Of a stretch of DNA of 64,000 nucleotides, positions 49,972 to 64,000 are shown piece by piece; position 1 is the first letter of the stretch, and the number at the start of each line of letters is the position of its first letter. The position numbers and the translations under genes are program-made. This DNA is from Deltaproteobacteria bacterium GWC2_55_46 (GTDB taxonomy: Bacteria; Desulfobacterota; GWC2-55-46). The notes under the pieces were generated by a model that did not search any database, was not told the DNA's origin, and saw only the letters and a list, made by a program, of their open reading frames with translations. The DNA lies in assembly GCA_001595385.3 (NCBI GenBank), contig LVEI03000001.1, positions 372,001-436,000 on the forward strand. Reading direction: 5' to 3'.

Positions 49972-50706
49972 TCAGCTCAGGCTCGGGATCAGGCTATTCA
50001 GGTACACCGCTATAATACCAAGAGAGTTGGTAAATATCAATAGTCCAGTGGCTACCAGGAAGATGCCGGTTACGACAGATACGACCCGCATGTGTTTTTT
50101 GAGCCTGTTGAAGTGCTTAAGGAAGGTGTTGATGCCAAGGGACGTCAGCAGGAATGGTATGGCCAGCCCAACGGAGTAAGCTATGAAAAGGAGCATGCCT
50201 GACCAGGGGCTTTCGGAGGTGGCTGCCACGGCGAAGATGGCTGAGAGTATCGGGCCTATGCAAGGTGTCCAGCCCGCGGCGAAGCCGATGCCGACAAGGA
50301 ACGAACCGAGAAGCCCAGTGGGCTTCTCGCGGAAGAAATGGAGGCGCTTGTCCCTCTGGAGTATGTTGAAGTTGATGATGCCTATGATGTGGACGCCGAG
50401 GAGTATTATGACCAGGCCGCCGATCTTCCGTATGACGTCCTGGTACTCCATGAAAAGGCTTCCGAAGAGCTGGGCTGAGGAGCCCAGGATGACGACGAAG
50501 ACGGTGGAGAAGCCGAGTATGAACATGAGGGAGTTGAAGAGGATCACCTTCTTGAGCGACTTGTCCCCTTCCACGCTGGTGAGCTCCTCGAAGGAGATGC
50601 CTGTCACAAACGAGATATACGACGGCACGAGCGGCAGGACGCATGGCGATACGAAGGACAGAAGCCCTCCCATGAACGCGAGCGGTATTGAGACATCGGT
50701 TGTCAT
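49972..50706 (-). CDS. ccdA: Thiol-disulfide membrane carrier CcdA
   Basis: 244 residues, six membrane spans, DsbD-core family. Passes electrons from cytoplasmic thioredoxin to extracytoplasmic thiol reductants. The two essential cysteines are in GGLLSFVSPCVLPLVPSY (about residue 22) and GFAAGWTPCIGPIL. It follows the ResA-like gene by 46 nt and is in turn followed by a glutaredoxin-like gene. Confidence 0.92.
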   Translation of the reverse strand: MTTDVSIPLAFMGGLLSFVSPCVLPLVPSYISFVTGISFEELTSVEGDKSLKKVILFNSLMFILGFSTVFVVILGSSAQLFGSLFMEYQDVIRKIGGLVIILLGVHIIGIINFNILQRDKRLHFFREKPTGLLGSFLVGIGFAAGWTPCIGPILSAIFAVAATSESPWSGMLLFIAYSVGLAIPFLLTSLGINTFLKHFNRLKKHMRVVSVVTGIFLVATGLLIFTNSLGIIAVYLNSLIPSLS

Positions 50707-50752
50707 CTTGGGACCCTTCCCTCACTAAAACGGTCAGTGACTCCAGAAGCTA

Positions 50753-51352
50753 TTATTTCGCCTCGGCCTTGTATTCGCCCTTTTTCCTGGCTCCGTAACT
50801 GATGAGGTCCATGATGGTCTTTGTCGCATCAGGGTCGGTCCAGTCCTTCGGCCCCCATATCTTCTCGGCTATGACCCCGTTCTGGTCTATTATGAACGTC
50901 TCGGGGACACCTGTTGTCTTGTATCTCTCCTTTATCTTGCCGTTCCTGTCATGCAGTATGGTAAAGGTCAACCCGTAGCGCTTCGCGAACTCCGCGACGG
51001 TCTCAGGTCCGTCCTTATCGACGCTTACCGCGACTATCTCAAAAGGGAATGTCTTAAGGTTCTCATAGAGCACCTGCATGGACGGCATCTCATCCTCGCA
51101 CGGCTTGCACCAGGTAGCCCAGAAGTTCAGGAATATCACCTTGCCCTTGTAATCGCTCAGCTTGTGCATCTTGCCGGAAAGGTCCGGGAGCTCGAAGTCT
51201 ATCATCTCCGAGTTCGCGACCACCGGTTCGAACTTCTGCCTCTGGGTAAAGACTATTACGACCACCGCGGCGACTACAGCCAGGATGATTGCGGCTATGG
51301 CTGTCTTTGGCAGCCCTTTCTCGTTATCGTCGCTTTTCAACTTTTCGCTCAT
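50753..51352 (-). CDS. resA: ResA/TlpA-like membrane-anchored thioredoxin
   Basis: 199 residues: N-terminal anchor (AIAAIILAVVAAVVVIVF) and an extracytoplasmic thioredoxin domain with FLNFWATWCKPCEDEMPS (CxxC reductant motif) and VPETFIIDQNG (cis-Pro). It reduces apocytochrome c heme-binding cysteines, receiving electrons from CcdA. ATG 51352 has AGGGG five bases upstream; a GTG one codon earlier is less likely. It lies in the resB-ccsB-resA-ccdA operon. Confidence 0.9.
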   Translation of the reverse strand: MSEKLKSDDNEKGLPKTAIAAIILAVVAAVVVIVFTQRQKFEPVVANSEMIDFELPDLSGKMHKLSDYKGKVIFLNFWATWCKPCEDEMPSMQVLYENLKTFPFEIVAVSVDKDGPETVAEFAKRYGLTFTILHDRNGKIKERYKTTGVPETFIIDQNGVIAEKIWGPKDWTDPDATKTIMDLISYGARKKGEYKAEAK

Positions 51353-51385
51353 CACATCCCCTGAGATCTTTTTTTCTATCCCTGA

Positions 51386-52273
51386 TCAAGCGTACGCGTG
51401 CAGGCCCGGGAGTATGAAGCTTACGCCCCAGTACAGGAATATCACGGCAAGGAAGCCGGCTATGGAAAGATAGGCTGCCCGCGTGCCTCTCCATCCCCTC
51501 GTGACCCTGGCGTGAAGGTACGCCGCGTATATCAGCCAGGTGATGAGCGACCACGTCTCCTTCGGGTCCCAGCTCCAGTATGTGCCCCATGCGTAGTTGG
51601 CCCATACAGCGCCCGAGACGATGCCGACCGCGAGGAAAGGGAACCCCCAGGCGACAGCCCTGTAGCTGAGCTCATCGAATACCTTCGAATCAGGGAACGA
51701 GTCTATGATCGAATTTCGTTTCCCGCTGTTCTCGTATCTGTGCTTTACCAGATAAAGCAGCGCGAGACCGAACGATATCGCGAAACCGGCATAGCCGACG
51801 AAGGTCATAAAGACGTGGAAGTCGAGCCAGCCAATGGCGTACTTCTGAAGGCCCCATGTGGACAGGATGTCAGACATCCAGTGCCACTTGTTCTGCAGGG
51901 CGGGGTTCAGCGGCTCCGCGTCCTTGAAGCTGTACGGAAGTAAAGAGGCGGAAAGCATGGCCAATGACTCGATGCCCATTACTACGGCGCCCACGGACTT
52001 GAGCTTGTGCTTGTACTCCATCAGCAGATAGCCCGCGTTAGTCGCCCAGATAAAGAGCATCATCGACTCCCACAGGTTCGAGAAGGGGGCGTGCCCGGAC
52101 TCCCCTGCCCTGCTGATGAGTATCATGGAGGTGGAGACCAGGGCGACGAAGGCCATCGCCGTTGCTGTCTGCCCAAGCCACTTCTTCTTTAAAAACCAGT
52201 TGCTAACGTACAGGACCGTCGTGATCAGGTAAAAGACGAACGAGAACGTAAAAAAGACAAGAGAAAGTATCAT
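51386..52273 (-). CDS. ccsB: Cytochrome c maturation protein CcsB/CcsA-type (second copy)
   Basis: 295 residues, eight spans. Heme-handling tryptophan motif WGTYWSWDPKETWSLITW (about 240-257) and flanking His in FHVFMTFVGYA and YLHARV. ATG overlaps the resB stop (ATGA), so this is a tightly coupled ResB-CcsB synthetase. It is the canonical copy, whereas the pair at 2464-4824 is more divergent. Confidence 0.93.
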   Translation of the reverse strand: MILSLVFFTFSFVFYLITTVLYVSNWFLKKKWLGQTATAMAFVALVSTSMILISRAGESGHAPFSNLWESMMLFIWATNAGYLLMEYKHKLKSVGAVVMGIESLAMLSASLLPYSFKDAEPLNPALQNKWHWMSDILSTWGLQKYAIGWLDFHVFMTFVGYAGFAISFGLALLYLVKHRYENSGKRNSIIDSFPDSKVFDELSYRAVAWGFPFLAVGIVSGAVWANYAWGTYWSWDPKETWSLITWLIYAAYLHARVTRGWRGTRAAYLSIAGFLAVIFLYWGVSFILPGLHAYA

Positions 52274-53706
52274 TTATTCCCCCTGGACGCATCCGTTGAA
52301 AGTGCGCTGGTTATTTCCTTTATATCCTTTTCGAAGACCAGCTGGTTCTTGTTTATGGTACCGCCTATCCTGACCTCGGTCGATTGACCGGTGTCCTTAA
52401 GATAGATCCATATTCTCCTGTGATATATGAAAAAGGCCAGGATGAAGCCAAGGCCCATGATGATCGAACCGAGCCAGACTATGTTGGTGCCAGGGTCCTT
52501 GTTTACAGAGATGCCGGAATACATTATAGGACGGTGGGCGAGATAGACGAGGTCCTGGCTGGAATCGGGAATGGCCGGGAATATCCCAGGGTACTTCATA
52601 AAGAGCCACGGGGTGGACACGAGCCTGTCCCCGTCGTCATATACCTCGACCATCACCGCCGGGTTGTTGGCCTCCGGAGACTTGGAGAAGACGGTGCTTG
52701 TCCTCTCGTCATAGGCGAAATCCGCGGTATAGCCGACAAGCTTCACCGAGTACTTGCTGCCGGGGACTTTCTGCACGGCATCCCATTTAACGGTAAAAGG
52801 CGCCTCAGGCTTGCCCTTGTCCTTGTTCCTCAGGGCGATTTCAGCCTCTGAAACCTTGTTCCAGGACTGGCCGTAGCTCGACTGATAGAACCTTATCCCC
52901 TTGTAGTACAGAGGCTCGTTCACCCATATCTGCTTTTTAAGGACCTCTTTGCCGTCCTCCATGACGGCAAGGTTGGAGTTAAACTGTCTTATCTGGCCCG
53001 AATCATAGTAGTCTATCCAGAACTTATCGAGCCGGAGATTGAAATCGGCCTGCGGCACGCTTATGGTGCCGCCCTCGTTCACGGCAAAGAAGTCCTTATA
53101 TCCGGCATAACTGCCCACGATGGAGCCGAACAATATGACGAGCAGGCTTATGTGGATCGCATCTGAGCCGAGCCTGCCATGCCTGCCCTTCCAGGCGTAG
53201 ATGTAATATTCCTTCCCGCCTCCGGAAGAGACTACCCCGAACTTCTTCTTCCTGAGCACGCCAAGAAGCTTCTCCTTCAAGGCTTCGGGGCTCTCTTTTA
53301 TGCGCAGGGTCTCGTGGTGGGCAAACTTCTCTATGAGCTTTGGGTCGAATTTCTCTACCTTGTGATTCAATAACGACTTCCACTTGGGAGGGAACCTCTC
53401 CATGGTGCAGACGATGATGGATATGGACATAAGAGACAGGAGGGACATGAACCACCAGGCGTGGTACATGTCGTTAAACCTGGCGTAGAGGATGACCCTG
53501 GTCCACGTCTCACCGTATTGGGCGAGATATTCCTCGACAGGCGAGTTCTGTTCTACGACCGTCCCTATTATCGCGGTCAAGGCGATGGATACGAGGATGA
53601 ATATGGTCAGCTTTAGGGAGTTAAGAGCGCTCCAGACCCTGGACCCGAGAGTCTTGTACCACCTGGCGTCGACGACTTGAGCCGCTTCCTTTGCTTTATC
53701 GGGCAT
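52270..53706 (-). CDS. resB: Cytochrome c biogenesis protein ResB (second copy)
   Basis: 478 residues. First span SLKLTIFILVSIALTAIIGTVV with the following EQNSPVEEYLAQYG, second span WWFMSLLSLMSISIIVCTMERF, a third (DAIHISLLVILFGSIVGSYAG), a large extracytoplasmic domain (about 215-395) and a final span near residue 405-430. It is 15 nt after the TPR lipoprotein gene and leads the ccsB-resA-ccdA operon. Confidence 0.93.
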   Translation of the reverse strand: MPDKAKEAAQVVDARWYKTLGSRVWSALNSLKLTIFILVSIALTAIIGTVVEQNSPVEEYLAQYGETWTRVILYARFNDMYHAWWFMSLLSLMSISIIVCTMERFPPKWKSLLNHKVEKFDPKLIEKFAHHETLRIKESPEALKEKLLGVLRKKKFGVVSSGGGKEYYIYAWKGRHGRLGSDAIHISLLVILFGSIVGSYAGYKDFFAVNEGGTISVPQADFNLRLDKFWIDYYDSGQIRQFNSNLAVMEDGKEVLKKQIWVNEPLYYKGIRFYQSSYGQSWNKVSEAEIALRNKDKGKPEAPFTVKWDAVQKVPGSKYSVKLVGYTADFAYDERTSTVFSKSPEANNPAVMVEVYDDGDRLVSTPWLFMKYPGIFPAIPDSSQDLVYLAHRPIMYSGISVNKDPGTNIVWLGSIIMGLGFILAFFIYHRRIWIYLKDTGQSTEVRIGGTINKNQLVFEKDIKEITSALSTDASRGNK

Positions 53707-53721
53707 ATTGGTCAGGCTTCC

Positions 53722-54273
53722 TTATTTTTTAGTCAGAGCTGAAAGATATTCCGCGGCGGCCTTGCCGATCTGGCTCTCAGGGTTGAGGGCGTTGGCCTTC
53801 TCCCAGGCTGCCTTTGCCCCCTCCATATCGCCTGAGCCGTAAGCGAGTATGAAGCCCTTGGTTAGCCATATCCTCTGGTGGTACGGGTTCTTGTTTATGC
53901 CTTCCTCAACGTACTTGAGGGCCTCTGCCGAGTTGCCCAGATAATGGAGAGAAAGACCCAGGTCGTTATACAGATCGGTCTCGCCCGACTTTATCGCCAG
54001 CACTTTTTTGTAATAGACGGAGGACTGCTCGAACTGTTTTGACTCAAAGTAAACGTCAGCAAGTTGCCAGAGGAGCTGTGTGTCCTTCGGGTTCTCTCTC
54101 AGCTTGCCCTCCAGCTCGGCTACGAGATTGGTGTTGCCCATCGATGGATGCGGGGCCTGTTGCGTCTGCTGGACCTCCCCGCCGGGTTGCTGCCCTTTAT
54201 CCTTTGAGCAACCCGCAAACGCGAGCCCGATGGTTACTATAGCGGTTGCCAGGACAAGGTTCCTGCTCTTCAA
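53722..54273 (-). CDS. TPR lipoprotein of the cytochrome c operon
   Basis: 183 residues: signal peptide with lipobox FAGC (Cys about 21), a Gln/Pro-rich linker, then three to four TPR repeats (about 50-180: QLLWQLADVYFESKQFEQSS, DLYNDLGLSLHYLGNSAEAL, QRIWLTKGFILAYGSG). Similar in design to the TPR part of CcmI/NrfG, which hold apocytochrome, so an apocytochrome chaperone is plausible. TTG start at 54273 with AAGGAGG four bases upstream. Confidence 0.8.
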   Translation of the reverse strand: MKSRNLVLATAIVTIGLAFAGCSKDKGQQPGGEVQQTQQAPHPSMGNTNLVAELEGKLRENPKDTQLLWQLADVYFESKQFEQSSVYYKKVLAIKSGETDLYNDLGLSLHYLGNSAEALKYVEEGINKNPYHQRIWLTKGFILAYGSGDMEGAKAAWEKANALNPESQIGKAAAEYLSALTKK

Positions 54274-54285
54274 GGTGCCTCCTTA

Positions 54286-54711
54286 TTAATGCCTCAGATG
54301 TGAGAAGCGCTCGTCTATCGCCTTTTTTATTCCGTTCATGTCCACGCCTTTTTTATGCAGGTCATGGGCCATGATGGCCTCGTAAATACAGATATCGCAA
54401 TTGGCCCCGTGCTCGTCGACAAAACAGCTCAGGAGGCTCTTGTGGCCGAAGTTCTTCTCGCAGTCGCAATAGCAGTACAGGCCGTCAAGCACTTCAGGCA
54501 CCTCGGCGGCTGCCTGGTAGGCCGCAGCTGTCTCACCGGTAAAGTTCGACGCAGGAAGGGTCGGCCTCGTCTCGCCTCCCTTTCCAAGGGTAACCGAGCT
54601 TGCCGGTTGAGGAGCGGCCGTCTGTTTGGCTGAATCGCAGGATGAAATGCCGAGAGCGAGGAATGCAACAAGCGGGAATATTGCTACTAAATATTTTAAG
54701 CTACGGACCAT
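54286..54711 (-). CDS. PCYCGC-type Cys-rich lipoprotein
   Basis: 141 residues. Lipobox SSC (Cys about 25), a Pro/Ala linker, then the conserved Cys domain: GLYCYCDCEKNFGHKSLLSC, FVDEHGANCDICIYEA. This matches the PCYCGC-motif lipoprotein family, here YCYCDC. Six or more cysteines and a His suggest binding of a metal such as copper or heme; the role is not established. It is 12 nt upstream of the TPR lipoprotein and is probably the first gene of the maturation operon. Confidence 0.75.
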   Translation of the reverse strand: MVRSLKYLVAIFPLVAFLALGISSCDSAKQTAAPQPASSVTLGKGGETRPTLPASNFTGETAAAYQAAAEVPEVLDGLYCYCDCEKNFGHKSLLSCFVDEHGANCDICIYEAIMAHDLHKKGVDMNGIKKAIDERFSHLRH

Positions 54712-54845: not shown

Positions 54846-55703
54846 CTACAGCGCGTGGTCCTTCTTTGGCTCTGAAGCAGAGTAGCTTGCCTTTGTTATC
54901 TTCTCTTCCTCGTTAAAGAGAATGCACTTTGTGGGGCACCTCTTTATGGACTCGTCGGTCTGGGGGGCGACAGCGTAGTTCACTGCCGCGAGGTTTTCCT
55001 TTAAGGCGATGCCCCCGGGCACCGAGCAGTCCTTCACGCACAGGCCGCAGGCGATGCAGGCGACCTTGCAGGCCTTCTTGGCGTAGGCGCCCTTGTCCTT
55101 GCTCTTGCAGTAGACGAAGAGCTTGTGGTCCTCGGGGTGCATCTCGATTATGTCCCTGGGGCATGCCCTGGCGCACGCGCCGCACCCCACGCACTTGTCG
55201 TATAAGACGACCGGCAACCCGTTGGAGTTCATCACCATGGCGTCGAAGTCGCAGGCGTCAACGCACTCCCCAAGCCCAAGGCAGCCATAGGTGCAGGACT
55301 TGTCCCCGCCGGTGATGTCGGCCGCCGTGCAGTTCATATCGCCCTTGTAGGCGGCGCGCCTTTCGGACTCGGCGTCGCCTCCGCGGCACAGCACCACGGC
55401 GAGCATCCTCTTCATCGACCCGGCCTCGACCCCGAGCATGGCGGCTATATGCGCGACCGCCTCGTTGCCGCCTACCACGCACCCGGTAGGCAAGGCATCT
55501 CCCTTTACAAGGGCCTCGGCGAAAGGCCTGCAGCCAGGGTACCCGCAGCCGCCGCAATTGGTGTTCGGCAGGGCGTTTATGACAGCCTCTATCCTCGGGT
55601 CCTCCTCGACCTTGAGCTTCCTGTCGGCGAAGGCGAGAAAACCTGCGAGCACCGCCCCGATGACGCCCATGCTAAGGGCTGATATTATAAGTATCTCTAC
55701 CAT
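54846..55703 (-). CDS. rnfB: Rnf complex ferredoxin subunit RnfB
   Basis: 285 residues, Fe-S subunit that accepts electrons from ferredoxin. One N-terminal span, then the CGGCGYPGC cluster motif (about 51-59) with a further Cys, CTYGCLGLGECVDAC, CVGCGACARACP and CIACGLCVKDC (ferredoxin-type pairs), and a last RCPTKC. The gene follows rnfA by 9 nt and ends the rnfCDGEAB operon. No intrinsic terminator is seen after it. Confidence 0.95.
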   Translation of the reverse strand: MVEILIISALSMGVIGAVLAGFLAFADRKLKVEEDPRIEAVINALPNTNCGGCGYPGCRPFAEALVKGDALPTGCVVGGNEAVAHIAAMLGVEAGSMKRMLAVVLCRGGDAESERRAAYKGDMNCTAADITGGDKSCTYGCLGLGECVDACDFDAMVMNSNGLPVVLYDKCVGCGACARACPRDIIEMHPEDHKLFVYCKSKDKGAYAKKACKVACIACGLCVKDCSVPGGIALKENLAAVNYAVAPQTDESIKRCPTKCILFNEEEKITKASYSASEPKKDHAL

Positions 55704-55712
55704 TAAATTTGA

Positions 55713-56303
55713 TTATCCTCTTATAAGCCCGGCAAAGCCCATGAAAGCGAGGGCTAGCATGCCGGATACAATAAGTGTCATGGAAACACCCTGAAAGTGC
55801 CTGGGGACGTCGGCGAACTCAAGCTCTTCCCTTATGCCGGACATCATGACTATCGCAAGTGTAAAACCCACGCCGGTTGCGAAGCCGAAGACTATCGATT
55901 GGAGATAGTTGTAGTCCCTCAACACCATGAAAAGCGCAAGGCCCAGCACCGCGCAGTTAGTTGTTATAAGAGGCAGGTAAATACCTAAGGCCCTGTAGAG
56001 CGCCGGGCTTGACTTTCTTATGTACATCTCCACCAGCTGGACAAGGGCGGCGATGATTATTATGAACGAGACGTACTGGAGGAACGGGACATGAAAAGGC
56101 ACGAGCACGTAGTTGTATATGGGCCAGGTCGCGGCGGCGGTAAGGGTCATGACGAAAGTGGTAGCAAGGCCCATGTTAACGGCGTTCTCAGTCTTGTTCG
56201 ACACCCCCAGGAACGGGCATATGCCGAGGAAATAGGTCAGGACGAAGTTGTTTATGAGCGCGGCCGATATGAATATCAGTATAAGTGTTCCAAGAGTCTC
56301 CAT
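55713..56303 (-). CDS. rnfA: Rnf complex membrane subunit RnfA
   Basis: 196 residues, six spans, pseudo-symmetric partner of RnfE. INNFVLTYFLGICPFLGVSNK is the conserved first helix with the inner cluster Cys (CPFLGV), and TTNCAVLGLALF carries the second. Starts directly after the rnfE stop. Confidence 0.95.
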   Translation of the reverse strand: METLGTLILIFISAALINNFVLTYFLGICPFLGVSNKTENAVNMGLATTFVMTLTAAATWPIYNYVLVPFHVPFLQYVSFIIIIAALVQLVEMYIRKSSPALYRALGIYLPLITTNCAVLGLALFMVLRDYNYLQSIVFGFATGVGFTLAIVMMSGIREELEFADVPRHFQGVSMTLIVSGMLALAFMGFAGLIRG

Positions 56304-56933
56304 TTAAACCCTCGCCGTCTCGGCCGCCTTTGCGGCCTTCCTGCTTGATATGTAGTTTACGAGCGCCACGAGCCCCCCGAAGACGAGGAACGCCCCGGCC
56401 GGGAGTATCATGACTATCCAGGGCTCGAACCAATCGCCGAGGACCCTGAAATGCAGGATGGTCCCGAAGCCAAGGACCTCGCGTATAAGCCCCATAGCGG
56501 CGAGGCTCAACAGAAAACCGATCCCTATGCCGAGAGCGTCCGCTATGGAAGGCAGGACCGGGTTTTTCTGGGCGAACGCCTCTGCCCTGCCGAGTATCAT
56601 GCAGTTGACTATTATAAGCGGCAAGTACGGGCCAAGCGCTTTTGATATGGGCGGGAAAAAGGCCGCCATGAACATATCGGTCACTGTGACCAGCAGCGCG
56701 ATGATGACGATATAAGAGGCGATCCTCACCTGCGAGGCCACGAACCTCCTCAGGAGAGATACCATGATATTCGCACCGAGGAGGACGAAAAGGGTCGCAA
56801 GCCCCATGGCGATGCCGTTTACGACTGAGTTCGTGACCGCCAGCGCCGGGCATGTCCCCAGAACGAGCCTGAAAGGAGGCAGCTCCTGCCAGAGCCCTTT
56901 TTTGAACTCATATCCAAGGCCTTTACCTGCCAT
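56304..56933 (-). CDS. rnfE: Rnf complex membrane subunit RnfE
   Basis: 209 residues, six spans. Conserved LVLGTCPALAVTNS and IVNCMILGRAEAFA, the Cys pairs that with RnfA hold the intramembrane [2Fe-2S] cluster. Overlaps rnfG by 11 nt and abuts rnfA. Confidence 0.95.
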   Translation of the reverse strand: MAGKGLGYEFKKGLWQELPPFRLVLGTCPALAVTNSVVNGIAMGLATLFVLLGANIMVSLLRRFVASQVRIASYIVIIALLVTVTDMFMAAFFPPISKALGPYLPLIIVNCMILGRAEAFAQKNPVLPSIADALGIGIGFLLSLAAMGLIREVLGFGTILHFRVLGDWFEPWIVMILPAGAFLVFGGLVALVNYISSRKAAKAAETARV

Positions 56934-57558
56934 GTCTTACCTCCGGCGCCTGCTTCTGTTCCTCCGAAGCCGCCTTGGACAGGTCTTCAGCCTTAGGGAA
57001 CGCCTTAAGGACCTTTTCCACGGCCTTGTTTATATTGCTCACAACGGCGTTGGAGGATATCGTGGCGCCTGTTATGGCCTGGATCTGGTTAGGCTTCTCC
57101 GGCTTCCTGTATTTTATATATTCGACCATGGGCTGAGCCTCGACACCATTAAATTGGTCCTTGAACGCGCTCTCCCTTATCCTGTCTCCGAGGCCGGGGG
57201 TCTCGGTCTGGTCGAGTATCTCAATGCCTTTGAGCTTAAGATAATCGAGGTTGAGGCCTACCATGACGCCCACGTTGCCCTGGAACCCGACGCCGTCGGC
57301 CTTGAAGGCCACCCCAACAGGCTTTTGAGTCTCGTCAAGGCCGATATATACGACCACCGGGTTGCCAGCGCCAAGCTCTTTTTTAACGGTCTTTATGTTC
57401 TTGGCCTCAGGTAGCACCTTGAAGATGGCCTCCTTGAGCTCTTTTTCCTTGTTGGCGCGTATCATCGGGTCGGCTACCGAAAAGACGCCCGCGAGGACGG
57501 CCCCGGAGAACGAGCCGATGACGACAAGGTTCAAAAACATTTTTATCGCTGTGTTCAA
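56923..57558 (-). CDS. rnfG: Rnf complex FMN-binding subunit RnfG
   Basis: 211 residues; one N-terminal span and an extracytoplasmic FMN domain with the covalent attachment motif TGATISSNAV (Thr in TGAT, about 175). Also GLGDRIRESAFKDQF. TTG start at 57558 supported by GGAGG six bases upstream; ATG 57540 is an alternative. Confidence 0.94.
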   Translation of the reverse strand: MNTAIKMFLNLVVIGSFSGAVLAGVFSVADPMIRANKEKELKEAIFKVLPEAKNIKTVKKELGAGNPVVVYIGLDETQKPVGVAFKADGVGFQGNVGVMVGLNLDYLKLKGIEILDQTETPGLGDRIRESAFKDQFNGVEAQPMVEYIKYRKPEKPNQIQAITGATISSNAVVSNINKAVEKVLKAFPKAEDLSKAASEEQKQAPEVRHGR

Positions 57559-57579: not shown

Positions 57580-58608
57580 TTAGCCCCGTTCGCCTGCCCC
57601 GAAGACCCTGGGCCTGGTGTGCTTGTTGAGGAGCGGCACAAAGGCGTTCATGAAAAGTATCGAGTACATGACGCCTTCGGGGAGCCCTCCGAAGAGCCTT
57701 ATGACCACCGCCAGCATGCCGGCGCATATGACGAATATCCACTGCCCCATCGATGTCGTAGGAGACGTCACCATGTCGGTTACCATGAACCAGGCTCCGA
57801 GCATCGCGCCGCCCGCGAGGAGATGGAAGAGCGGGCTCGGGTACTTCACCGGGTCGGAGAGCCAGAAGATCGACGAGAAGGCGGCTATCGTGCCCAGGTA
57901 CCCCAGCGGAAGCTTCCAGTTTATATAGCCCTTGTACCTGAGATAAAGTCCGCCGATTATTATAGCTATGGCAGAGGTCTCTCCGAGTGAGCCGGAAGTA
58001 TTGCCGAGGAACATGTCCATCCAATTGAAATCGACCTTGCCCTCGAACTTCGCAAGGGCCAGCGGGGTAGCGGCCGTTACCGCGTCAACCGCCTTCTGGA
58101 CGGTCCGTGGCTCCACCCAGGTGGTAGTAAGGACCGGGTACGTCGCCATGAGGAAGGCCCTTCCAAGGAGGGCCGGGTTAAATATATTGAAACCGAGGCC
58201 GCCGAAGAGTTGCTTGCCCACGCCTATCGCAAATAACGAGCCGAGCACAGCGCCGTATACCGGGAACCCCGGCGGCAGCGTAAGCGCCAGGAGCATGCCT
58301 GTTATTATGGCGCTGCCATCGTATATCTTTATGGGCTTATTTCTTATCCTCTGGAATGCGTACTCGGTTGCGAGGCACGCCGTCACGCAGACGGTGATAA
58401 GAAGGAGCGCCCTCCACCCGAAGAAATAGACGCTCGCGGCAACGGCCGGGAAAAGAGCGAGCACGACCGTGTGCATTATCTTCGGTATGCTCTCGTCGTT
58501 AAGGAAGTGCGGCGAAGGAGATACGACCAGCCTTGCGGCCGCCTTGGCCGGCGCCTCGATCGGGGCTTCCTTCAGCTGATTATTGTTTTCCACGGTCTTC
58601 TGGTCCAT
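57580..58608 (-). CDS. rnfD: Rnf complex membrane FMN subunit RnfD
   Basis: 342 residues, about nine spans. Conserved SPSPHF start, GGLGFNIFNPALLGRAFL, and AATPLA, whose Thr is the expected FMN-phosphothreonine site. The true start is ATG 58608, which shares one base with the rnfC stop (TAATG); a longer open frame to 58731 only overlaps rnfC in a different frame. Confidence 0.94.
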   Translation of the reverse strand: MDQKTVENNNQLKEAPIEAPAKAAARLVVSPSPHFLNDESIPKIMHTVVLALFPAVAASVYFFGWRALLLITVCVTACLATEYAFQRIRNKPIKIYDGSAIITGMLLALTLPPGFPVYGAVLGSLFAIGVGKQLFGGLGFNIFNPALLGRAFLMATYPVLTTTWVEPRTVQKAVDAVTAATPLALAKFEGKVDFNWMDMFLGNTSGSLGETSAIAIIIGGLYLRYKGYINWKLPLGYLGTIAAFSSIFWLSDPVKYPSPLFHLLAGGAMLGAWFMVTDMVTSPTTSMGQWIFVICAGMLAVVIRLFGGLPEGVMYSILFMNAFVPLLNKHTRPRVFGAGERG

Positions 58609-59948
58609 TATTTTGTCTCGCCATGGCCATTCTGGGCCTCCTGGCGGAGCTTGAGCTTCCCGAGCCTTATCCACTGCAGCAGCGGCCTCTTCGACGGGCA
58701 CACATAGGAGCAGCAACCGCACTCTATGCAAGTGAGCCCGTCCCAGCCCTTGAAGTCAGCGGTCCTGTACGCCTTTCCGTAATCACCGAGCCTGTAGGGC
58801 ATGAGACCCATGGGGCAGGCCTCCACACAGCTCGCGCACCTGATGCATGGCTCGTATTGAAAGGTCTTTCCGGCATCAGCGGCTATGACCGTAATGCCTG
58901 ATGTGCCCTTTACGACCGGCACGTTGAGGGTCGGCTGGGAGACGCCCATCATCGGGCCGCCGTTCAAGACCTCAACTTCCTGACAGTCGATGAGGCCGCC
59001 GCAGAGCGCCAGTACGTCTTCAAAAGACGTGCCCACGCGCACCCTTAAGTTCCTGGGCTCCTTTACGCCGTTGCCGCTTATGGTGACGACCCTGTCTATG
59101 AGGGGCTTGCCCCAGTTCAGGGCCTCGTATACGGCGATGGCCGTGCCGACGTTGCTGACGATGACGCCAACGTCAAAGGGGAGCTTGCCGACAGGGACCT
59201 TCCTGCCAAGGGCGGCCTTTATAAGCATCTTTTCCGCGCCCTGGGGGTATTTGGCCTCGAGGACTATTATCTTTATATCGGAAGAGCCGGCTACGGCCCT
59301 GCCAAGGGCGCTTACAGCGTCGGGCTTATTCTCCTCGATCCCGATGACGCCGCTTGGGGCGCCTACGGACCTCATGATGGCGCGCAGGCCCCAGACGACC
59401 TTGTCCGGCTCCTCCAGCATCATCCTGTGGTCTGCGGTAAGAAATGGCTCGCATTCGCAGCCGTTAAGTATAACGGCATCAATGGCCTTGCCCTTCGGTG
59501 GAGAGAGCTTAACCGAGGTCGGGAACGCGGCCCCGCCCATGCCGACGATACCTGCGTCCTTCACGGCTTCGCGTATGGCCTCGGGAGAAAGGGAGGCGAG
59601 GTCGGCAACACCGTTCTGAGGGCCCCATTCCTTCGCGGAGCCGTCCCCCTCGATGATGACAGACAGGCACCTGAAACCGCCCGGGTGCTGCGCCATCTCT
59701 ATATCTTTTATTTTTCCTGAAATACTTGCGTGGACAGGCGCTGAGATGAAGGCCTTTACATCGCCTATCATCTGCCCTTCCTGGACCACCTCGCCTTTCT
59801 TGACGAGTGCCTCGCAGGGCGCGCCTAAATGCTGCTGAAGAGGTATGGTTACCGTCTTTGGCAGTGCAGCCGGCTCGATGGGCCTACCGGCGGTAAGCTC
59901 TTTATAATAAGAGGGGTGTACCCCTCTTTCAAATGTCTTGTGTCCCAT
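58608..59948 (-). CDS. rnfC: Rnf complex NADH-binding subunit RnfC
   Basis: 446 residues, peripheral subunit where NAD+ is reduced. GMGGAAFPTSVKL nucleotide/FMN block, NGCECEPFLTADH, GGPMMGV, then two [4Fe-4S] motifs CIRCASCVEACP and CIECGCCSYVCPSKRPL. First gene of rnfCDGEAB. ATG 59948 has no Shine-Dalgarno on its strand. The leader carries a ZTP-type riboswitch with terminator, and a second candidate promoter just before the gene. Confidence 0.95.
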   Translation of the reverse strand: MGHKTFERGVHPSYYKELTAGRPIEPAALPKTVTIPLQQHLGAPCEALVKKGEVVQEGQMIGDVKAFISAPVHASISGKIKDIEMAQHPGGFRCLSVIIEGDGSAKEWGPQNGVADLASLSPEAIREAVKDAGIVGMGGAAFPTSVKLSPPKGKAIDAVILNGCECEPFLTADHRMMLEEPDKVVWGLRAIMRSVGAPSGVIGIEENKPDAVSALGRAVAGSSDIKIIVLEAKYPQGAEKMLIKAALGRKVPVGKLPFDVGVIVSNVGTAIAVYEALNWGKPLIDRVVTISGNGVKEPRNLRVRVGTSFEDVLALCGGLIDCQEVEVLNGGPMMGVSQPTLNVPVVKGTSGITVIAADAGKTFQYEPCIRCASCVEACPMGLMPYRLGDYGKAYRTADFKGWDGLTCIECGCCSYVCPSKRPLLQWIRLGKLKLRQEAQNGHGETK

Positions 59949-59966
59949 TTGTTTAGGAGGTCAAGA

Positions 59967-59995
59967 GATATAATCTTCTGACCGTCGTGGGTCAA
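59967..59995 (-). promoter_or_regulatory. Second candidate promoter directly before rnfC
   Basis: TTGACC (59995-59990, 5/6), 17-nt spacer, TATATC (59972-59967, 4/6). It lies after the riboswitch terminator, so transcription from here would escape the riboswitch. Confidence 0.45.
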
Positions 59996-60014: not shown

Positions 60015-60074
60015 AAAAAACCGTCATAGCAAAGCACGCAGCCTCATTTGGCTGCAGGTCTTTGCCCAGACGGT
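60015..60074 (-). terminator. Riboswitch-controlled terminator before rnfC
   Basis: Three stacked stems on the minus strand: ACCGTC/GACGGT (60074-60069 with 60025-60020), GCAAAG/CTTTGC (60065-60060 with 60034-60029), GCAGCC/GGCTGC (60055-60050 with 60043-60038), then TTTTTT (60020-60015). The 5' arm is the conserved 3' strand of the ZTP aptamer, so folding of aptamer and terminator exclude each other. Confidence 0.85.
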
Positions 60075-60142
60075 CGGCATGCTACATATCACGTTTCCCG
60101 ATCCCCAGTGGTAGCCACCTTGATTCCGTCAGTCACGGGAAA
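60063..60142 (-). ncRNA. ZTP (pfl) riboswitch aptamer in the rnf leader
   Basis: Minus-strand reading: stem P1 TTTCCCG (60142-60136) with CGGGAAA (60100-60094). P1 encloses GTGACTG, a GGTGG/CCAC hairpin and TGGGGAT, all in the order of the ZTP aptamer. After a short linker comes the hallmark GCCGACCGTCTGGGCA (60078-60063), the 3' domain that forms the pseudoknot in this class. A promoter lies upstream and a competing terminator overlaps the 3' domain. ZTP riboswitches bind the AICAR derivatives ZMP/ZTP, alarm signals for low 10-formyl-tetrahydrofolate, and usually turn genes on. Assigned by pattern memory, not by covariance search. Confidence 0.87.
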
Positions 60143-60160
60143 ACTCAGTTATCTTATACT

Positions 60161-60190
60161 ATGATAATTCATGATGCCTTGTATTGTCAA
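60161..60190 (-). promoter_or_regulatory. Promoter of the ZTP riboswitch-rnf transcript
   Basis: TTGACA (60190-60185, 6/6), 18-nt spacer, TATCAT (60166-60161, 5/6); predicted start near 60154, just before aptamer stem P1. Confidence 0.7.
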
Positions 60191-62851: not shown

Positions 62852-62886
62852 CCCGCGCATCCGGTAAAAACTTTTTGAGGTTGAAG

Positions 62887-64000
62887 ATGATTAGAAAGGC
62901 TGTAATTACGCTACTTATAGCGGCCTTCGGCTGGGCAGCCATTTGCCAGCAGGCCCTTGCCGAGGAGAGCAAGTTCAGGAAGAGCTTCAGGACGAGCTAC
63001 GAGCAGAACAGGTTTGACGCGCTCGGTTTTCTTGTCAGGACCAACAGAGACAAGCTGCCAGGCGAGATACAGTCGCTTATCGACGAGGCCAGGGCAGCCG
63101 AAAGCTTTCCCGAGAAGATGGTCATCCTGGACCTCGCGAACGCCATGGCTACGATGCACAAGGAATGGCACGGGGTGGACACCTTCCTTCCAGAAATAGA
63201 AAAGATGCAGAAGGAAGAGATAAAGAAGGAAGAGTCGAGGAAGGCCGAGATCGAGAAATGGGAAAGGTACGAATCCTTCCCGGGCAACCTGTTGATGAAG
63301 GCAAAGGCGGAGGAGCTGGAGGCCATAGGGCTTTCTCCTGTAATCTTCCCTCACTGGGTCCACAGGATAAACTTCGAGTGCAAGGCCTGCCACCAGGAGC
63401 TCTTCCAGATGAAGAGGTCGGACGCGATAACCATGACAGAGATATTCGAGGGCAAGCTCTGCGGAGCGTGCCATAACGGGAAGGTGGCCTTCGACGCAGC
63501 CGAAAGCTGCGAGATGTGCCACGTTGCCGGCAAACCCGAGGCAGAGCCGCTCGTCTCACCGAAAAAAGCGGATATGAAAAACATAAAGGCCACCGCAGAC
63601 CGTCTCGGCACAGGGCTCGACCTTGACCTGCTGCCCAACAATAAGCTTCCATTCGACAAGTTCGGCAACATAGACTGGACGCTCCTGAGGAAGGCCCAAA
63701 AGCAGCCTATAAAATCGATAAAGAAGGACCCTCCAACGGACGAGACCAGGGATAACGAGATACTCTTCGAGTCGCCGGTACCCTTTGTGAGCCACGTGGT
63801 CTTCAGCCACAAGAAACACTCTGAAATGATCGTCTGCTCATCCTGCCACCAGGAAGTTTTCAGAGAGGATCTCGGCTCGTCAAGGGTCAACATGACCGAG
63901 ATGTCTCGTGGAGCCTCGTGCGGCGCATGCCACGGAAAGGTCTCATTCAAGTTCGCGGACTGCAAGCGCTGCCACTCAAAGCCTGCCGGAGAGACAGCCG
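62887..64000 (+). CDS. Periplasmic multiheme c7-type cytochrome, 3' end outside window
   Basis: 371 codons are visible with no stop, so the gene continues. Signal peptide AVITLLIAAFGWAAICQQALA (about 5-25), an unassigned charged helical domain (about 26-150), then two copies of a triheme c7-type domain. Heme motifs CxxCH start at residues 165, 192, 208 and 317, 345, 359. Each half repeats the order FPHWVH or FSHKKH, CH-QE-F, M-E-x-G-CGACH-GKV-F, C-x-x-CH. Such cytochromes move electrons in the periplasm of metal- or sulfur-respiring bacteria. More heme sites may follow downstream. Open frames on the opposite strand are shadows. Confidence 0.92.
   Translation, partial: MIRKAVITLLIAAFGWAAICQQALAEESKFRKSFRTSYEQNRFDALGFLVRTNRDKLPGEIQSLIDEARAAESFPEKMVILDLANAMATMHKEWHGVDTFLPEIEKMQKEEIKKEESRKAEIEKWERYESFPGNLLMKAKAEELEAIGLSPVIFPHWVHRINFECKACHQELFQMKRSDAITMTEIFEGKLCGACHNGKVAFDAAESCEMCHVAGKPEAEPLVSPKKADMKNIKATADRLGTGLDLDLLPNNKLPFDKFGNIDWTLLRKAQKQPIKSIKKDPPTDETRDNEILFESPVPFVSHVVFSHKKHSEMIVCSSCHQEVFREDLGSSRVNMTEMSRGASCGACHGKVSFKFADCKRCHSKPAGETA

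What the first reader, a model, noticed from the sequence alone, without database searches (positions are those of the whole stretch)
60015..60190. ZTP (pfl) riboswitch apparently controlling an Rnf operon
Seen: a sigma70 promoter, a ZTP-type aptamer with the GCCGACCGTCTGGGCA 3' domain, and a long terminator whose 5' arm is that same domain, all pointing at rnfC 115 nt on. Known: this class senses ZMP/ZTP, which rise when 10-formyl-tetrahydrofolate is short, and normally controls purine and one-carbon genes. Inference: this organism turns on ferredoxin:NAD+ oxidoreductase when one-carbon supply fails, tying membrane energetics to folate status. purF and purL in the same window lack the element. 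I recall no rnf member of this regulon.
Basis: partly seen in the sequence, partly recalled or inferred. Interest (0 to 1): 0.87.

Follow-up and report, generated by a model that had tools for sequence, protein, structure and literature searches.

The report
Folate-alarm riboswitch on Rnf operon
In a class of uncultured groundwater bacteria, a known RNA sensor for a folate-shortage signal sits in front of the genes of a membrane energy complex (Rnf) and of reductive TCA-cycle enzymes, which suggests that cells short of one-carbon units raise electron supply and carbon metabolism rather than only purine and folate genes.

Summary
Window 60146-60057 (-) is a true ZMP/ZTP riboswitch (RF01750, 53.2 bits, cut-off 39; the window's only Rfam hit). 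It has an intact pseudoknot, an upstream promoter, and a terminator (-34.1 kcal/mol) whose 5' arm is the pseudoknot strand: a transcriptional ON-switch 108 nt before rnfCDGEAB. It is not a one-off: 30 of 63 genomes of the class have the element before rnfC, all with an overlapping terminator, and the RnfC tree suggests more than one origin. Outside the class none of 74 rnfC-bearing genomes of the phylum sample has one beside rnfC.
Two points change the interpretation. (1) A second promoter-like site lies between terminator and rnfC in 20 of 30 leaders, the window's included, and resembles the promoter of ZTP-less rnf operons. The switch therefore probably raises rnf expression above a basal level rather than turning it on. 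(2) Rnf belongs to a retargeted regulon: isocitrate dehydrogenase plus ATP-citrate lyase, sucCD-korAB, transhydrogenase, and serA with an aminotransferase. purH and fhs are never near an element, and 12 of the 30 ZTP-rnf genomes have no detected fhs. I infer supply of reductant and carbon for serine-derived one-carbon units. Ligand binding and direction of electron flow are untested.

The parts
60161..60190 (-). P1: sigma70-type promoter (TTGACA 60190-60185, TATCAT 60166-60161) upstream of the aptamer
   Evidence: 11 of 12 matches; TTGAC within 75 nt upstream of the aptamer in 30 of 30 rnf leaders
60057..60146 (-). ZMP/ZTP riboswitch aptamer (RF01750)
   Evidence: 53.2 bits, E 7.8e-6; model R1 gives 79.2 bits (the window row is in that model by construction)
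60126..60130 (-). J1/2 strand of the pseudoknot, GACGG
   Evidence: paired with 60073-60069; 98% of cells paired, 2 of 5 pairs with compensatory changes in 32 sequences
60069..60073 (-). P3-loop strand of the pseudoknot, CCGUC, also part of the terminator's 5' arm
60015..60075 (-). intrinsic terminator (stem 60075-60019, U-tract 60020-60015), mutually exclusive with P3/pseudoknot
   Evidence: -34.1 kcal/mol, z -4.5; overlapping terminator in 30 of 30 rnf leaders
59967..59995 (-). P2: second promoter-like site after the terminator (TTGACC 59995-59990, 17-nt spacer, TATATC 59972-59967); weak -10
   Evidence: TTGAC between terminator and rnfC start in 20 of 30 leaders against about 2.8 expected; the scan does not list it because its -10 fails that tool's filter
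58608..59948 (-). rnfC
   Evidence: TIGR01945 516 bits, cut-off 246
57580..58608 (-). rnfD (start overlapping the rnfC stop)
   Evidence: TIGR01946 337 bits, cut-off 207
56923..57558 (-). rnfG
   Evidence: TIGR01947 108 bits, cut-off 102
56304..56933 (-). rnfE
   Evidence: TIGR01948 219.5 bits, cut-off 213.4
55713..56303 (-). rnfA
   Evidence: TIGR01943 260 bits, cut-off 229
54846..55703 (-). rnfB
   Evidence: TIGR01944 125 bits, cut-off 69

Best explanation
A genuine ZMP/ZTP riboswitch controls the rnfCDGEAB operon by transcription termination. Transcription from P1 makes the aptamer. When ZMP/ZTP is high (10-formyl-THF short) the ligand-bound pseudoknot holds the P3-loop strand, the terminator cannot form, and RNA polymerase reads through into rnf; when it is low the same strand becomes the 5' arm of the terminator and the P1 transcript stops. 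A second promoter (P2) after the terminator probably gives basal, switch-independent rnf transcripts, so the riboswitch adds expression. In this bacterial class the same sensor controls a retargeted regulon: IDH plus ATP-citrate lyase, in some families sucCD-korAB and NAD(P) transhydrogenase, and the serA/aminotransferase operon. The likely logic is that one-carbon units come largely from serine, so one-carbon shortage raises reductant supply (Rnf, transhydrogenase), reductive TCA-type carbon reactions and serine synthesis. Shown by sequence: element, pseudoknot, terminator overlap, P1, conservation, regulon membership. Inferred: ligand, P2 activity, direction of Rnf and TCA reactions, physiological purpose.
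For: RF01750 match at full length. Pseudoknot and P1-helix covariation. Terminator overlapping the pseudoknot strand, z -4.5, in 30 of 30 rnf leaders. The P3 loop CCGUCUGGG is essentially invariant in the class. ZTP-rnfC adjacency in 30 of 63 genomes; the RnfC tree needs 4-5 label changes, with f1+f4 and f13 apart. ZTP-less rnfC loci give no weak hit even at E 10. Two-promoter anatomy: 20 of 30 with TTGAC after the terminator against 9% expected, and 16 of 20 ZTP-less rnfC have TTGAC within 120 nt of the start. Regulon partners: monomeric NADP-IDH TIGR00178 1366 bits and ATP-citrate-lyase domain PF16114; PGDH, hisZ, purA; sucC, sucD, korA, korB, pntA. Own genome: three elements only, before rnf, IDH-ACL and aminotransferase-serA. 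Elsewhere in the phylum the elements stand before genes that read as glyA, fhs and serA/aminotransferase.
Against: No ligand-binding, transcript or expression data exist for these organisms. P2 in the window has a poor -10 (TATATC) and 10 of 30 leaders show no TTGAC there. Whether the TCA enzymes run reductively, and whether Rnf makes or uses reduced ferredoxin, cannot be read from sequence; KOR in G000 is known only from split matches below the fused-family cut-off. 18 of the 30 ZTP-rnf genomes carry fhs, so formate could also feed one-carbon units there. IDH, transhydrogenase and Rnf could equally be an NADPH/redox response.
Confidence: 0.72

Rival explanations
1. NADPH/redox rival: the riboswitch is real, but the regulon supplies NADPH and redox balance for folate reduction and one-carbon interconversion (IDH, transhydrogenase, Rnf), with the TCA steps running oxidatively, not for carbon fixation.
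For: NADP-dependent IDH, NAD(P) transhydrogenase and Rnf all move reducing equivalents.
Against: ATP-citrate lyase in the same operon as IDH and sucCD-korAB under the same switch in family f13 fit the reductive cycle better; serA-aminotransferase supplies serine, not NADPH.
Confidence: 0.25
2. Formate rival: Rnf makes reduced ferredoxin so that CO2 is reduced to formate and loaded on THF by Fhs, as pyruvate formate-lyase supplies formate in Firmicutes.
For: The function would match the best-known ZTP target pfl (PMC2864571); fhs occurs in 18 of 30 ZTP-rnf genomes.
Against: 12 of 30 ZTP-rnf genomes, including all five other members of the window's genus, have no detected fhs; fhs is never near an element; no CODH/ACS match in 63 genomes.
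Confidence: 0.1
3. Switch largely bypassed: rnf is transcribed mainly from P2, and the riboswitch-controlled P1 transcript is a minor contribution or a relic.
For: P2-like sites in 20 of 30 leaders, resembling the promoter of ZTP-less rnf operons.
Against: P1, aptamer and terminator are all kept in 30 of 30 leaders, with compensatory changes, and the arrangement probably arose more than once, so the switch is under selection. P1 is closer to consensus than P2 in the window.
Confidence: 0.15
4. Changed ligand: the class uses the pfl fold for a different metabolite related to energy or carbon status.
For: Unusual target genes; the class-wide A-U pair inside the pseudoknot differs from the commonest family sequence.
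Against: The A-U change is compensatory and also found before fhs-like genes outside the class; the P3 loop CUGGGC and full model length are kept; the same aptamer type stands before serA operons, a target shared with other taxa.
Confidence: 0.05

Closest known systems
ZMP/ZTP riboswitch (pfl motif, RF01750), e.g. Thermosinus carboxydivorans and Clostridium beijerinckii pfl
   Same: aptamer, J1/2-P3 pseudoknot, terminator competing with P3, transcriptional ON logic (PMC7337938)
   Different: controls rnf and TCA-type genes; a second promoter-like site follows the terminator
ZTP regulon of purine and formyl-THF genes (purH, fhs, pfl, glyA, folD; PMC2864571)
   Same: serA/aminotransferase(-purA) operon, seen also elsewhere in the phylum
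   Different: purH (58 genomes) and fhs (28 genomes) are never within 6 kb of an element in this class; Rnf, IDH-ACL, sucCD-korAB and pnt operons are added
Rnf operons (RnfABCDGE ferredoxin:NAD oxidoreductase)
   Same: six subunits in the order C-D-G-E-A-B, all above family cut-offs
   Different: carries a riboswitch leader; none of 74 rnfC-bearing genomes of the phylum sample outside the class and none of the nearest named rnfC loci outside the class has one

Membership tests
ZMP/ZTP riboswitch RF01750 | covariance-model score above the curated gathering score | tested here: met
   53.2 bits against 39, full length
ZMP/ZTP riboswitch RF01750 | P1, P2 and P3 helices with compensatory changes | tested here: met
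   P1 region: 10 of 12 pairs with changes on both sides; whole structure 83% paired against 76% in shuffles; P2 is undercounted because MAFFT misaligned it in some rows
ZMP/ZTP riboswitch RF01750 | pseudoknot between J1/2 and the P3 loop | tested here: met
   98% paired; 2 of 5 pairs compensatory
ZMP/ZTP riboswitch RF01750 | conserved P3 loop with the U next to the ligand (CUGGGC) | tested here: met
   role of a loop U from PMC7337938
ZMP/ZTP riboswitch RF01750 | binds ZMP/ZTP | not testable with these tools
   needs in-line probing or ITC
ZTP transcriptional ON-switch | terminator whose 5' arm uses the P3/pseudoknot strand | tested here: met
   30 of 30 rnf leaders
ZTP regulon (typical gene context, not defining) | target gene in purine or one-carbon metabolism | tested here: inconclusive
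   rnf is outside it; a sister element of the same genome stands before aminotransferase-serA-hisZ-purA
Rnf complex | RnfC, D, G, E, A and B family models passed in one operon | tested here: met
reductive TCA-cycle regulon | ATP-citrate lyase, KOR and IDH under the same switch | tested here: inconclusive
   IDH-ACL in about 34 elements, KOR only in f13; direction of flux not testable

The most novel reading that the evidence does not exclude
In this class ZMP/ZTP acts as a carbon-status signal: its riboswitches set the expression of reductive TCA carbon fixation (IDH, ATP-citrate lyase, KOR, sucCD), of its reductant supply (Rnf, transhydrogenase) and of the serine route to one-carbon units, instead of purine and formyl-THF enzymes.
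Probability: 0.45. Interest if true: 0.78.

Novelty: new variant of a known kind. Interest (0 to 1): 0.62.

Why it matters
It would be the first described case, in the literature I could search, of a folate-stress riboswitch controlling a membrane energy-conserving complex and TCA-type carbon metabolism. It gives testable content to the idea that ZTP is an alarmone whose meaning depends on where a cell's one-carbon units come from, and it offers a regulatory handle on the physiology of an uncultured class. The two-promoter arrangement shows how a riboswitch can be layered over an existing promoter.

Tried and rejected
Chance or misread element: rejected. One-off insertion before rnf: rejected (30 genomes). 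Weak elements missed before other rnfC genes: rejected (0 hits at E 10). Formate/Fhs route as the general reason: weakened (12 of 30 lack fhs). Wood-Ljungdahl link: no CdhC match in 63 genomes. A ZTP survey of Nitrospirota failed because that option needs a G handle. My terminator counter marked some IDH, pnt and kup leaders negative only because it chose an earlier T run; by eye most of those sequences show a GGCGGTTTTTTT-type end.

Full report
OBSERVATION. The window has one Rfam match at gathering level: the ZMP/ZTP riboswitch RF01750 at 60146-60057 on the minus strand, full length, 53.2 bits against a cut-off of 39. A promoter (TTGACA-18-TATCAT) lies at 60190-60161. The stretch after the aptamer folds into a terminator of -34.1 kcal/mol (z -4.5, none of 200 shuffles as stable); its 5' arm GACCGUC at 60075-60069 is the strand that forms the pseudoknot with GACGG at 60130-60126. 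RnfC starts 108 nt after the aptamer, and all six Rnf subunits pass their family cut-offs in the order C-D-G-E-A-B. purF and purL are in the window without an element.

IS IT MORE THAN CHANCE. In the class (63 genomes) 47 genomes carry ZTP elements. I fetched 100 elements with their downstream genes and found that 30, in 30 genomes, stand directly before rnfC. In a phylum sample of 395 genomes, 25 have a ZTP element and 90 have rnfC; comparing coordinates, no element outside the class lies beside rnfC. Of the 80 nearest named rnfC loci, seven carry the element, all 'Deltaproteobacteria' or 'Proteobacteria' MAG contigs that match class genomes. Twenty ZTP-less rnfC loci of the class give no hit even at E 10. 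An RnfC tree needs 4-5 gains or losses of the trait, with a clade of families f1 and f4 separate from two f13 genomes: more than one origin, or repeated loss.

STRUCTURE. Across 32 aptamers (24 rnf leaders, 8 from other phylum members) the structure has 14 pairs with changes on both sides and 83 such cells, against 10.1 and 33.2 in shuffles; sliding the partners destroys the signal. The pseudoknot is 98% paired, and two of its five pairs vary by compensatory change (A-U to G-C; G-C to U-A or A-U). The P3 loop CCGUCUGGG is nearly invariant in the class; a U of that loop contacts ZMP in crystal structures (PMC7337938). So ZMP/ZTP is the expected ligand. Binding itself was not tested.

EXPRESSION PLATFORM. 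In all 30 rnf leaders the P3 strand can pair with the terminator, and TTGAC lies within 75 nt upstream of the aptamer. By the mechanism known for this class (pseudoknot as antiterminator, PMC7337938), this is an ON-switch. New here is a second promoter-like site after the terminator: TTGAC between terminator and rnfC start in 20 of 30 leaders (9% expected by shuffle), many 45-52 nt before the start, often followed by TATCAC, TATTAC or TATCAA at 17 nt; in the window TTGACC 59995-59990 and TATATC 59972-59967. ZTP-less rnfC genes have TTGAC within 120 nt of their start in 16 of 20 cases. The simplest reading is that the switch unit (P1, aptamer, terminator) was placed upstream of the old rnf promoter, which still works. 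IDH leaders show the same arrangement (21 of 25). P-values here treat related genomes as independent and are therefore too small. The activity of P2 is inferred.

REGULON. By target, the 100 elements divide into: monomeric IDH with ATP-citrate lyase 34 (plus one before ACL alone and one before a dimeric IDH with ACL), rnf 30, aminotransferase-serA(-hisZ-purA) 20, a CPA2 antiporter 5, sucC-sucD 4 (followed by korA-korB in the two longest contigs), transhydrogenase 3 (one a weak hit), kup 1 and one undetermined at a contig end. The window's own genome has three elements: rnf, IDH-ACL, aminotransferase-serA-hisZ-purA. purH (58 genomes) and fhs (28 genomes) are never within 6 kb of an element. Outside the class, elements of the same phylum stand before genes that read as glyA, fhs, aminotransferase-serA(-purA) and aminotransferase-def-fmt (named from sequence, not by model search). 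The class has thus kept the serine branch of the usual regulon and added TCA-type and energy genes.

MECHANISM AND PURPOSE. A CODH/ACS (CdhC) match was not found in any of 63 genomes, and 12 of the 30 ZTP-rnf genomes lack a detected fhs (some of these genomes are incomplete), so formate is unlikely to be the general reason. With serine as the main one-carbon source, low 10-formyl-THF would call for serine, hence for carbon skeletons and reductant. Rnf (ferredoxin/NAD), transhydrogenase (NADPH), IDH, ACL, KOR and serA form one line from CO2 or acetyl-CoA to serine. This is inference: the same genes could serve an NADPH response, and neither the TCA direction nor the Rnf direction can be read from sequence.

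KNOWN OR NEW. The element is an ordinary member of a known class. In the open library no paper joins 'ZTP riboswitch' with rnf or with isocitrate dehydrogenase; [quoted passage not shown] The 2015 ZTP paper is not held, and supplementary gene lists could not be opened, so priority is not certain. I rate it a new variant of a known kind: same sensor and switch, retargeted regulon, added second promoter.

Noticed in passing
window 59948-59970 and rnf leaders of G012, G013, G014: rnfC has no AGGAGG-type ribosome site; its ATG follows CCTCCTAA or similar, while IDH and serA leaders of the same class carry a strong AGGAGG. A GAGGGGTACACCCCTC hairpin lies just inside the gene.
   Followed up: no
L035, L034 and other IDH and serA leaders: The promoter-aptamer-terminator-promoter arrangement also occurs before IDH-ACL (TTGACAAA-N-TTTAGT; 21 of 25 with TTGAC) and in half of the serA leaders.
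   Followed up: partly
window 49972-54711 (-): Directly after rnfB on the same strand lie a PCYCGC-motif protein, a TPR protein, ResB, a cytochrome c assembly protein, a TlpA-like thioredoxin and a CcdA/DsbD-like protein: a system II cytochrome c maturation cluster that may or may not be read with rnf.
   Followed up: partly
L061, L064, L068, L072, L073 (genus g3) and L125 (G059): In genus g3 a ZTP element precedes a CPA2 cation:proton antiporter, and in G059 one precedes a Kup potassium transporter: ion-transport targets with no evident folate link.
   Followed up: no
L214 (G268): Two near-identical ZTP elements 3.3 kb apart, each followed by a glyA-like start (MRALRDxLSATDPE), suggesting a duplicated or remnant leader.
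   Followed up: no
window 62875-63999 (+): Multihaem cytochrome c7/c3-type protein, running off the window end.
   Followed up: no
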